DNA from: Verrucomicrobiota bacterium
GTDB taxonomy: Bacteria > Verrucomicrobiota > Verrucomicrobiia > Palsa-1439
NCBI GenBank assembly: GCA_003164675.1
Contig: PLTX01000113.1
Coordinates: forward strand, 1-59,816
DNA: 59,816 nt
Direction of reading: 5' to 3'
The notes under the pieces are model-generated. The model made no database searches. It was not told the DNA's origin and worked only from the letters and a program-made list of their open reading frames with translations. Numbering within the stretch: position 1 is the first letter of the stretch; each line of letters opens with the position of its first letter. The position numbers and the translations under genes are program-made. Of the stretch, positions 580 to 6,838 are shown in pieces.

Positions 580-628
580 GGTAGGGTTTTGCCCCATAGC
601 GAAGGGTCAGCCCATGGCGTAGCGTGCT
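580..628 (+). promoter_or_regulatory. GGTAGGG/CCCCAT repeat element, copy 1
   Basis: GGTAGGGTTTTGCCCCAT (580-597) is followed by a tail ending in ATGGCGTAGCGTGC. The whole about 50-bp block recurs at 6790 with a few substitutions and one indel, and its core recurs at 2954. It lies 71 nt upstream of the BON-protein start in the intergenic region. Position and recurrence beside stress-type genes suggest a regulatory site, but the binding factor is unknown. Confidence 0.5.
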
Positions 629-667: not shown

Positions 668-1447
668 ATGAGAGTATCATATCCATTGGTGCTTTTAGTG
701 GCTGTGGCCGCCCTGGTGGGCAGCAGCACACCATTGCGCGCGTCCGAGACGGATGACCGCGTCGAGTCCTCGTTCAAGAAGACCTACATCTATAAGACGT
801 ATCTGAAGGACGAACATATCAAGATCAGCTCCAAGGATGGAGCCGTCACCTTGTCGGGCGACGTCTATAACGCAACCCACAAACCGATGGCCCAGGACAC
901 CGCCGCAGCGTTGCCCGGGGTCACGAGCGTGGACAATCGTATCACAGTCGTAGGCGACCAACCCGCCGAGAGCTCGGATACGTGGATCAGCATGAAAGTG
1001 AAAGCGGCACTGCTGTATCGTCGTAACGTCAGCGGCACCAAGACCGAGGTGTATGTGAAAGATGGCATGGTGACATTGAAAGGCGTGGCCGCCAACCAGG
1101 CCCAAAAGGACCTGACCACCGAATATGCCAAAGACATCGACGGTGTGAAAGGCGTGGAGAACGAGATCGTCGTCTCCAAGAACCTGGATACACGCGGCGA
1201 AACAACGGGCGAAAAGATTGATGACGCATCGATCACCGCCCAGGTCAAGGGATCGTTGCTGTCGCATCGCTCGACCAGCGTGCTCAACACCAAGGTCACG
1301 ACCAACGATGGTGTGGTCACGGTGAGCGGCAAAGCCAGGAACGAAGCCGAAAAGGCTTTGGTCACCAAGCTCGTCACCGACATCAACGGTGTCCAGAGCG
1401 TGGTCAACGACATGACGATCGAGGAGGCCGCGCCCAAGAACAACTAG
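668..1447 (+). CDS. periplasmic protein with three BON domains (OsmY-like)
   Basis: 259 aa with a strong ribosome site (AAGGAAGGA) before ATG. Residues 1-25 form a cleavable signal peptide (LLVAVAALVGSS...LRA-SE). Three BON repeats follow at about 28-95, 103-172 and 183-253, each with the pattern 'DG.VTLSG.V.N..', 'A....GV..V.N.I'. BON domains bind phospholipid or envelope structures, and OsmY-type proteins protect the envelope under osmotic or folding stress. The second and third repeats are typical; the first is most diverged. Its neighbours (LEA-like, Lmo0937-like) also point to stress. The GGTAGGG element upstream may control it. Confidence 0.85.
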   Translation: MRVSYPLVLLVAVAALVGSSTPLRASETDDRVESSFKKTYIYKTYLKDEHIKISSKDGAVTLSGDVYNATHKPMAQDTAAALPGVTSVDNRITVVGDQPAESSDTWISMKVKAALLYRRNVSGTKTEVYVKDGMVTLKGVAANQAQKDLTTEYAKDIDGVKGVENEIVVSKNLDTRGETTGEKIDDASITAQVKGSLLSHRSTSVLNTKVTTNDGVVTVSGKARNEAEKALVTKLVTDINGVQSVVNDMTIEEAAPKNN

Positions 1448-1456
1448 GCGTTAACT

Positions 1457-1502
1457 CACTGCTCGCTGGTGCGAGGGTAACCGGGCGCATCAGCCGTCAG
1501 TG
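1457..1502 (+). promoter_or_regulatory. 46-nt structured 5' leader hairpin, copy 1
   Basis: The outer stem CACTG/CAGTG and inner stem GCTGGTGCG/CGCATCAGC are separated by a 3x3 internal loop. The apical loop reads GAG..GTAA..GG. An equally long hairpin of the same geometry lies at 2264-2309. Both end about 30 nt before an ATG and share AACTGNAAGG around the ribosome site. There is no T-run, so it is unlikely to be a simple terminator. It starts 10 nt after the BON gene stop, so it could also act as an intercistronic processing or stability element. Confidence 0.6.
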
Positions 1503-1532
1503 AATCCAAGGCGAACTGAAAGGAAAACAGGC

Positions 1533-2111
1533 ATGAAGACAGAACACGCAGGAATGATTGAAACGGTAAAAGATGAAATTGTTGCCGCGATCCAAGGGAC
1601 GGGTGACATCGTCCAGGCGACGGTGGACACCATCACCAAAACGCTCGCCGCAACGTTCAAAGATTCCGGTAAGGCCGGCACGTCCGCAACCGATGCCATT
1701 GCCGACGTCGCGAGCGGTGCGATCCGTGGCGGCGTGCAGGTCGGCGCCGACCTGGGGCATGCCGCGAAAGGGATCATGGTCGGGGTACTGCGCGGCACCA
1801 AAGAGGCTGGCACGAAAGTCCTGGATACCATCAGCCACACCGCCCATGTCACGATCCGAGACACGGCCGCGGTCGGTGGCAACCTTGGGGCCGCTGCCAC
1901 CGGTCTTGTTGAAGGGGCGATTGCAGGCGCCAAGGAAGTGGGAGTCAGCGTTGAGGACGCTGCGTCGGCGGCAGCCGATGGGGCCTTGAAAGCGGCCGGC
2001 AAGGTAGGCTCGACCGCCGTGGAGACGGTTCGCAACGCGGTGACCAAGACCGCGCATGGCGCCAAGGTCGTGCTGAAACAATCCAAAGGTGGCCGGCCAG
2101 TAACAAGTTGA
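1533..2111 (+). CDS. Ala/Gly/Thr-rich amphipathic LEA-like protein
   Basis: 192 aa from ATG 1533, preceded by AAGGAAAA. A GTG at 1500 in frame would add 11 residues but lies inside the conserved leader hairpin, so I reject it. The protein has no signal peptide and is built of loose 11-residue-like amphipathic segments rich in Ala, Gly, Thr, Val and charged residues (for example AKEVGVSVEDAA), resembling LEA or apolipoprotein-like proteins. Such proteins protect membranes or proteins during desiccation or osmotic shock. That role is inferred from composition and neighbours; I do not recognise a named family. Confidence 0.7.
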   Translation: MKTEHAGMIETVKDEIVAAIQGTGDIVQATVDTITKTLAATFKDSGKAGTSATDAIADVASGAIRGGVQVGADLGHAAKGIMVGVLRGTKEAGTKVLDTISHTAHVTIRDTAAVGGNLGAAATGLVEGAIAGAKEVGVSVEDAASAAADGALKAAGKVGSTAVETVRNAVTKTAHGAKVVLKQSKGGRPVTS

Positions 2112-2116
2112 GGGCG

Positions 2117-2246
2117 TGTTGCCCAAACGAGTTTTAGCGCGTTTTGGTGTAGCGGCGCTTCTATGAAGCGCCGAATTTGTTCGGAAAATCAACGGCCCGC
2201 GCTTCGCAGCAGCGCGGCTGCAACAGCAAAAGGCATTTGGGCAACA
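2117..2246 (+). repeat. 130-bp REPIN/MITE-like element with 11-bp terminal inverted repeats
   Basis: TGTTGCCCAAA (2117-2127) and its exact complement TTTGGGCAACA (2236-2246) bound the segment. Inside lie two hairpins: GGCGCTTC-TAT-GAAGCGCC and CCGCGCT-TCGCAGC-AGCGCGG. No ORF fits. The arrangement of outer repeats plus GC-rich palindromes is that of a small non-autonomous palindromic repeat. It sits between the LEA-like gene and the second leader hairpin. Confidence 0.55.
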
Positions 2247-2263
2247 GGCCCTTGACATTAGAC

Positions 2264-2309
2264 CACTGCCCGCTGGTGCGAGAAGTAAATGGGGCACCAG
2301 CCGGCAGTG
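2264..2309 (+). promoter_or_regulatory. 46-nt structured 5' leader hairpin, copy 2
   Basis: CACTGCCCGCTGGTGC pairs with GCACCAGCCGGCAGTG with one mismatch, around a GAG..GTAA..GG-type loop. Compared with copy 1 at 1457, the G-T wobble becomes G-C and two internal-loop positions become C-G pairs, so pairing is kept while sequence changes. It ends 31 nt before the ATG of the Lmo0937-like gene (30 nt in copy 1). A TTGACA lies just upstream (2252-2257), but I see no good -10 box. Confidence 0.6.
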
Positions 2310-2340
2310 AAAAACAAACCAAACTGCAAGGGAGAATCAT

Positions 2341-2490
2341 ATGTTGTGGACGATTGCTGTAGTACTTCTCGTTCTGTGGGCGCTGGGACTGGTGACCAGT
2401 TACACGATGGGAGGGTTCATTCACCTCCTGCTGGTGGTTGCCATCGTCATGGTCCTGATCAACATCATTAGCGGACGGAGAGCCATGTAA
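2341..2490 (+). CDS. Lmo0937-like small membrane protein (49 aa)
   Basis: ATG preceded by AAGGGAG. The 49 residues form two hydrophobic helices (about 3-19 and 26-43) separated by SYTMGG, ending in a basic SGRRAM tail. This pattern (MLWTIAVVLLVLWALG... then GGFIHLLLV) is that of the Lmo0937 family of tiny inner-membrane proteins found across stress clusters. Molecular function is unknown. The preceding leader hairpin suggests coordinated control with the LEA-like gene. Confidence 0.85.
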   Translation: MLWTIAVVLLVLWALGLVTSYTMGGFIHLLLVVAIVMVLINIISGRRAM

Positions 2491-2529: not shown

Positions 2530-2742
2530 ATGAATTCAAAAACGATTGCAGTCATACTGATCGCACTCGGCATCGTGGTGCTTGCCTACTCGGGCATCAC
2601 GTACACGACAAGAGGAAAGCCCGTCAACATTCTCGGCGCGCGCATCGAGACCACGCAAAGCCACTTCATCCCCCCAGTGGCCGGGGCGCTCGTGCTGGCC
2701 GGTGGGATCGTGTTGTTCGCCGTGAATCCCAGGAAAACCTGA
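2530..2742 (+). CDS. small two-helix membrane protein
   Basis: 70 aa, ATG following CAGAGG. Helix one is about residues 5-22 (IAVILIALGIVVLAYSGI) and helix two about 48-65 (VAGALVLAGGIVLFAV). Between them is a short polar loop, TTRGKPVNILGARIETTQSH. Proteins of this shape accompany BON, CsbD and Lmo0937 genes in environmental bacteria. No function is established. It starts 39 nt after the Lmo0937-like gene and is probably co-transcribed. Confidence 0.75.
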   Translation: MNSKTIAVILIALGIVVLAYSGITYTTRGKPVNILGARIETTQSHFIPPVAGALVLAGGIVLFAVNPRKT

Positions 2743-6789: not shown

Positions 6790-6838
6790 GGTAGGGTTCT
6801 ACCCCATGGCGCACGGTTGGCTACATGGCGTAGCGTGC
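6790..6838 (+). promoter_or_regulatory. GGTAGGG/CCCCAT repeat element, copy 3
   Basis: GGTAGGGTTCTACCCCAT followed by a tail ending ATGGCGTAGCGTGC, closely matching 580-628. Here the core contains GGTAG-GGTT-CTACC, a perfect 5-bp inverted repeat. It lies 41 nt upstream of the GTG start at 6848. Confidence 0.5.

What the first reader, a model, noticed from the sequence alone, without database searches (positions are those of the whole stretch)
1457..2309. Repeated 46-nt RNA hairpin leader in front of two stress-type genes
Hairpins at 1457-1502 and 2264-2309 have equal length, the same stem layout, a similar GAG..GTAA..GG loop and compensating changes (G-T to G-C; internal-loop bases to C-G pairs). 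Each ends 30-31 nt before an ATG, with a shared AACTGNAAGG around the ribosome site. The two genes encode unrelated proteins (LEA-like and Lmo0937-like), so the hairpin is not explained by gene duplication. It looks like a cis-acting RNA element, perhaps a stress thermosensor, protein-binding leader or stability element.
Basis: partly seen in the sequence, partly recalled or inferred. Interest (0 to 1): 0.7.

Follow-up and report, generated by a model that had tools for sequence, protein, structure and literature searches.

The report
RNA hairpin between linked stress genes
A 46-letter hairpin occurs twice between neighbouring stress-type genes in this bacterium, and hairpins of the same family lie at matching gene boundaries in other bacteria; it is predicted to fold in the messenger RNA and would likely shield one gene's message from decay, so that genes probably copied together are made in different amounts.

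Summary
In detail: two 46-nt hairpins (1457-1502, 2264-2309) share their stem layout, fold better than shuffles and match no Rfam family. Comparison changes the reading. The element is mostly a gene-junction element rather than the leader of particular genes: of 43 curated copies, 31 start right after the stop codon of an OsmY-like BON gene (median 6 nt), and the next start codon follows 13-35 nt after the stem. What comes next varies (DUF5670/lmo0937, DUF3309, DUF883, CsbD-like, BON, LEA-like). Strong stems follow 27 of 43 BON gene ends against 18 of 193 other gene ends. Stem pairs covary in a 27-sequence alignment and in 12 further BON-junction sequences. Copies occur in Verrucomicrobiota, in six Desulfobacterota-type loci and in one Omnitrophota contig. 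Hairpin 2 in the window looks displaced from the LEA-like stop codon by a 142-bp element with two further full copies in the genome. Absence of a U-tract, a ribosome site outside the stem and clustering at these junctions argue against terminator, thermosensor and REP element. Best-supported role, inferred only: an intercistronic mRNA-decay barrier or processing boundary giving unequal output within a stress operon. New member of a known kind.

The parts
580..601 (+). Promoter- or operator-like motif GGTAGGGTTTTGCCCCATAGCG ahead of the BON gene
   Evidence: Repeats in the window; 13 hits in the genome against 2 for the reversed control pattern
668..1447 (+). OsmY-like gene with BON domains (259 aa), upstream partner of hairpin 1
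   Evidence: PF04972 E 1.2e-46, above cut-off; best NCBIfam match OsmY, below its cut-off
1457..1502 (+). Hairpin 1, 9 nt after the BON stop codon
1503..1532 (+). Spacer with ribosome site before the LEA-like gene (30 nt)
   Evidence: Conserved spacer in the 27-sequence alignment; length
1533..2111 (+). LEA-like gene (192 aa), no recognised family
2111..2252 (.). 142-bp inserted element with inverted ends that separates the LEA-like stop codon from hairpin 2
   Evidence: Two further full copies, 99-100% identical; ends from comparison of flanks
2264..2309 (+). Hairpin 2
2310..2340 (+). Spacer with ribosome site before DUF5670 (31 nt)
2341..2490 (+). DUF5670 / lmo0937-family small membrane protein gene (49 aa)
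   Evidence: PF18919 59.7 bits; NF033488 64.5 bits, both above cut-off

Best explanation
The two repeats are copies of a conserved hairpin, predicted to form in RNA, that lies between neighbouring genes of OsmY/BON-type stress gene clusters, and it likely acts as an mRNA-decay barrier or processing boundary that would keep the upstream message longer-lived and let one transcript yield unequal amounts of each protein. Shown by sequence: the place between a stop codon and the next ribosome site, stem covariation, a tighter link to BON genes than to any one downstream gene, no U-tract, a variable loop. Inferred and untested: that the genes are co-transcribed, that a nuclease cuts in the A-rich spacer or beyond, that the stem then blocks 3'-to-5' decay of the BON message, and that this matters under stress.
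For: Of 43 curated copies 31 lie directly after BON, median 6 nt from the stop, with eight kinds of following gene among the 43 counting two unrecognised ones as separate kinds. Starting from BON: of 47 gene ends, 18 of 20 followed by a recognised stress ORF have a stem of -20 kcal/mol or better within 20 nt (the two without have gaps of 15 and 42 nt), and 11 of 27 others do. Gene ends with a stem of -24 or better: 27 of 43 BON, 18 of 193 non-BON. Covariation: 12 of 15 pairs with changes on both sides in 27 sequences; 13 double-change cells against 4.9 in shuffles in 12 further sequences. At most 3 U in the 9 nt after the stem in 41 of 43. In G002:C45 an LEA-like gene that comes first behind the promoter-like motif keeps the spacer but its leader folds no better than shuffles. 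Precedent: intergenic processing sites with 3' stem-loops in operons (PMC4423207, abstract).
Against: No transcript, decay or expression data. The stem sequence, not just its strength, is conserved (CCGGCTGG..CCAGCCGG), which a plain barrier would not need. Twelve of the 43 copies are not directly after BON, among them hairpin 2, and some precede DUF5670 without BON. The sense strand is the more stable in only 30 of 43. Background gene ends come from neighbouring loci with crude ORF calls.
Confidence: 0.47

Rival explanations
1. It is a 5' regulatory leader of the downstream small gene: the stem controls translation or protects the 5' end of the downstream message, perhaps through a bound protein or a stress signal.
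For: The spacer and ribosome site after the stem are conserved in alignment. Twelve of 43 copies are not directly after BON, several of them before DUF5670. Stem bases are conserved beyond pairing.
Against: The downstream gene changes while BON stays. Among 99 DUF5670 loci, a hairpin at the right distance is found in 14 of 20 with BON within 300 nt (16 if two copies missed by the even-length scan are added) and 14 of 79 without, where the same scan may also have missed some. The ribosome site is outside the stem; its predicted unpaired probability has median 0.58 over 43, with 14 under 0.5, so pairing elsewhere is not excluded.
Confidence: 0.22
2. It is a partial terminator or attenuator that lets only some polymerases reach the downstream gene.
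For: It sits where a terminator would sit after BON; some BON gene ends in other families carry stems followed by T-rich runs (for example G066).
Against: At most 3 U in the 9 nt after the stem in 41 of 43; the two exceptions have 4 and 5.
Confidence: 0.13
3. It is a DNA-level palindrome: a protein-binding site or a REP-like or mobile repeat that happens to lie between genes.
For: Palindromes look alike on both strands; 12 of 43 copies are more stable on the antisense strand and one ties. GC-rich stems of this kind recall REP elements (recalled).
Against: In the own genome six of seven R2 matches are listed: five hairpins at stress-gene junctions and one antisense duplicate; the seventh is not shown. 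In G002 four strong R1 hits lie before DUF5670, the other two rows being an antisense duplicate and a weak hit inside an open frame. G-U outnumbers A-C, 68 to 30 and 19 to 9.
Confidence: 0.1

Closest known systems
Intercistronic stem-loops that set mRNA segment stability (Rhodobacter puf operon; cip-cel operon of Clostridium cellulolyticum)
   Same: Stable hairpin between genes read in one direction, no U-tract, upstream gene first in the row
   Different: Those have measured decay or processing (PMC4423207, abstract; puf as cited in PMC7509114, passages); here nothing is measured. Here the hairpin is conserved as a sequence family with changing downstream genes
E. coli osmY-ytjA junction
   Same: BON gene, then a stem starting 11 nt after its stop (-23 kcal/mol for the 48-nt piece, 0 of 200 shuffles as good), then a tiny membrane-protein gene
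   Different: Unrelated stem sequence; gap of 126 nt; DUF1328 instead of DUF5670 or DUF3309; function of that stem not established in what I saw
REP elements
   Same: GC-rich palindromes between genes (recalled)
   Different: REP elements are dispersed in many copies; listed hits here cluster at stress-gene junctions
RNA thermometers and other 5' regulatory leaders
   Same: A hairpin upstream of a start codon
   Different: Thermometers hide the ribosome site in the stem; here it lies outside

Membership tests
Intercistronic mRNA-stabilising stem-loop | Stable stem between two genes in the same direction | tested here: met
   31 of 43 curated copies directly after a BON stop and 13-35 nt before the next start
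Intercistronic mRNA-stabilising stem-loop | Genes on one transcript | not testable with these tools
   No transcript data; spacing and shared direction only
Intercistronic mRNA-stabilising stem-loop | Unequal decay or processing at the stem | not testable with these tools
   Needs RNA-seq or Northern blots
Rho-independent terminator | U-tract after the stem | tested here: not met
   At most 3 U in the next 9 nt in 41 of 43
RNA thermometer | Ribosome site inside the stem | tested here: not met
   Stem ends 13-35 nt before the start codon; site lies in the spacer. Other weak pairing of the site not excluded
REP element | Many dispersed copies in one genome | tested here: not met
   Own genome: 7 R2 matches at E up to 0.05, 6 listed, five hairpins, all at stress-gene junctions
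REP element | REP-associated transposase gene | not tested
   No search made
Riboswitch | Conserved unpaired ligand-binding core | tested here: not met
   Single stem; loops 3-14 nt and variable
Any Rfam 15 family | Covariance-model match | tested here: not met
   None at gathering score over the window except a tRNA; none at either hairpin with E up to 5 in 1400-2400

The most novel reading that the evidence does not exclude
A portable mRNA joint: a hairpin module that travels with OsmY-type BON genes, is copied to new gene boundaries as the operon gains genes, and is recognised by a dedicated RNA-binding or cleavage factor that fixes the ratio of BON protein to the small proteins encoded after it, in several phyla.
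Probability: 0.25. Interest if true: 0.72.

Novelty: new member of a known kind. Interest (0 to 1): 0.5.

Why it matters
Intercistronic hairpins are usually described one operon at a time. A family with covariation, regular spacing and changing downstream genes makes it testable whether mRNA segment stability is a reusable, evolved part of bacterial stress operons. It also gives the poorly known DUF5670, DUF3309 and DUF883 proteins a shared post-transcriptional setting with OsmY-like proteins.

Tried and rejected
Rfam: no family. On fetched loci R1 also reached Syntrophaceae L100 (E 0.0015) and Syntrophus L082 (E 0.0064). R2 at E up to 0.05 'matched' 129 of 387 genomes, but most of the weak rows that I looked at resemble only the ribosome-site end and were not counted; rows between 1e-5 and 1e-3 are mixed (G138 and G058 at BON ends, G324 and G166 before DUF3309 and CsbD-like genes without BON seen, others unrelated). 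Of 13 distinct places below 1e-5, one (G406) is not at such a junction and three are training sequences. A fuller strand test weakened the first result: 22 of 27 sense-stable became 30 of 43 with one tie; G357, G178 and G402 are clearly more stable on the antisense strand. L117 has only a weak stem (-9.6). Of the 20 BON ends with a recognised next ORF, 12 went into the second covariation alignment; left out were the two training copies, two without a hairpin, and G058, G328, G179 and G125, which I did not align. One of 48 BON hits (G239, a fragment) was dropped, and two hits in one G066 frame share a stop. One search crashed and was rerun corrected; that scan used even hairpin lengths and missed at least two copies. 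Thermosensor, terminator, REP and riboswitch readings were tested and set aside. Literature searches listed no paper on a hairpin at BON junctions; only listings were seen except for PMC4423207 (outline and abstract), PMC10100675, PMC7509114, PMC5437024 and PMC3946193 (passages). Most subscription journals are not held.

Full report
Observation. The two hairpins are at the stated places. They align without gaps over 46 nt; their 50-nt segments fold at -25.7 and -30.3 kcal/mol with none of 200 shuffles as stable, while the 93-nt pieces with flanks and spacer give 15 and 1 of 200. A probe of the 5' arm finds only these two in the window. Rfam has no match. The window is contig C45 of genome G000. 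A genome of the same genus, G002, has two contigs with the lengths of contigs of the Verrucomicrobia MAG palsa_1439.

Gene setting. The order is BON gene (668-1447), hairpin 1, a 192-aa LEA-like gene (1533-2111), a 142-bp element (2111-2252), hairpin 2, DUF5670/lmo0937 gene (2341-2490), 70-aa protein gene (2530-2742). The element has two further full copies in the genome, 99-100% identical, whose flanks place its ends at 2111 and 2252 (the left end from one copy exactly, from the other with one mismatch). TG precedes and follows it in the window, compatible with a short target duplication. By eye, without it the LEA-like stop would lie 8 nt before hairpin 2; the BON stop lies 9 nt before hairpin 1.

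Spread. A model from the two copies (R1) gave four strong hits in G002, each about 30 nt before a DUF5670 start. Reading upstream of 21 DUF5670 genes from relatives and of 80 named loci showed the same layout in further Verrucomicrobiota families, in six Desulfobacterota-type loci (L100, L082, L061, L105, L044, L117; the last weak) and in one Omnitrophota contig (L084). Twenty-seven such leaders, chosen by eye, align with a shared stem, spacer and ribosome site. A second model from them (R2) searched over 387 Verrucomicrobiota genomes gave 13 distinct places with E below 1e-5, an antisense duplicate aside. Three are training sequences. Of the other ten, nine lie directly after a BON stop (G000:C21, G309, G402, G347, G197, G200, G272, G255, G178) and one (G406) does not.

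What it is tied to. Downstream genes change: among 43 curated copies, DUF5670 25, DUF3309 10, BON 2, and one each of DUF883, CsbD-like, LEA-like, a small lipoprotein-like ORF, an unrecognised 271-aa ORF and a 10-codon remnant that begins like the LEA-like gene (remnant in G000:C21). The upstream gene is BON, directly, in 31; one more has BON 279 nt upstream with a small ORF between; 11 have something else or nothing recognised. Stop-to-stem distance after BON has median 6 nt and stem-to-start is 13-35 nt; boundaries were set by best energy. Starting from BON instead, 48 hits in 36 of 387 genomes gave 47 examined gene ends. Of 20 followed by a recognised stress ORF, 18 have a stem of -20 kcal/mol or better within 20 nt of the stop, and the two without have gaps of 15 and 42 nt; of the 27 others, 11 do. 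Stems of -24 or better follow 18 of 193 non-BON ORF ends in these loci (9%) and 27 of 43 BON ends (63%). For DUF5670, a hairpin at the right distance is found in 14 of 20 loci with BON within 300 nt (16 if two copies that the scan missed are added) and in 14 of 79 without, where the scan may also have missed some.

RNA or DNA. On the 27-sequence alignment 12 of 15 pairs show changes on both sides, and 82.9% of cells pair against 22-44% when one arm is slid. On 12 BON-junction sequences not used for the model, 90.7% of cells pair; 13 cells have double changes against 4.9 in shuffles, 6 pairs against 3.6 (18 of 500 shuffles reach 6), and one pair shows six standard types. G-U outnumbers A-C (68 to 30; 19 to 9). 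The sense strand is the more stable in 22 of 27 but 30 of 43 in the wider set: positive overall, weak outside the window's own family. RNA on the coding strand is the better reading, not a proven one. Relatedness of the sequences is not corrected for in any of these counts.

Mechanism. The stem is strong, sits between a stop codon and a ribosome site outside the stem, has at most 3 U in the next 9 nt in 41 of 43, has a variable loop of 3-14 nt, and in its own genome the listed hits lie at stress-gene junctions. This matches intercistronic stem-loops that slow 3'-to-5' decay of the upstream segment and allow unequal output from one transcript (PMC4423207, abstract; puf operon and 3' hairpins as cited in PMC7509114, passages). 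In G002:C45 an LEA-like gene directly behind the promoter-like motif keeps the 3' arm and spacer, but its leader folds no better than shuffles (145 and 158 of 200 as good), which fits a junction role better than a leader role; it is one case. Co-transcription, cleavage and stabilisation are all inferred. E. coli osmY-ytjA has a similar layout with an unrelated stem. In PMC10100675 (passages) osmY and ytjA appear next to each other among genes raised by fluoride; stabilisation was shown there for REP-containing transcripts, not for these two.

Novelty. The kind of element is known. This family has no Rfam match, and no paper describing it appeared in the ten searches named under Tried and rejected. 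I file it as a new member of a known kind, unusual for its conservation and its changing partners.

Noticed in passing
window 580-601, 2954-2975, 6790-6811: Near-palindromic motif GTAGGGTTNTRCCYCATRGCG, 13 hits in the genome (up to 3 mismatches) against 2 for the reversed pattern. By eye it precedes BON gene clusters, a sigma-70-like gene, an efflux-type and a pump-type gene, and it also stands before BON in L050 and before the LEA-like gene in L157: a candidate stress-regulon promoter or operator.
   Followed up: partly
window 2111-2252: 142-bp element with inverted ends, three full copies at 99-100% identity in the genome: MITE-like, recently moved, inserted at the stop codon of the LEA-like gene.
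   Followed up: partly
L152 1000-2100 (G000:C21): A short BON gene, a hairpin, a long BON gene, a hairpin, then a 10-codon remnant starting like the LEA-like gene: a sister copy of the window locus that seems to have lost that gene.
   Followed up: partly
L157 4478-4588 (G002:C45): The LEA-like gene stands first behind the promoter-like motif and keeps only the 3' arm and spacer of the hairpin leader.
   Followed up: yes
L223 1203-1328 (E. coli K-12 osmY-ytjA): A stable stem 11 nt after the osmY stop codon, before the tiny ytjA gene; two Verrucomicrobiota BON genes (G179, G125) are also followed by a DUF1328-like gene.
   Followed up: partly
window 2530-2742: 70-aa protein gene that follows DUF5670 in most of the related clusters shown; only a weak DUF202 match below its cut-off.
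   Followed up: no
L123 1241-1306 (G309): The DUF3309-like frame after the hairpin is only 21 codons long, so that gene looks broken or the assembly is faulty there.
   Followed up: no
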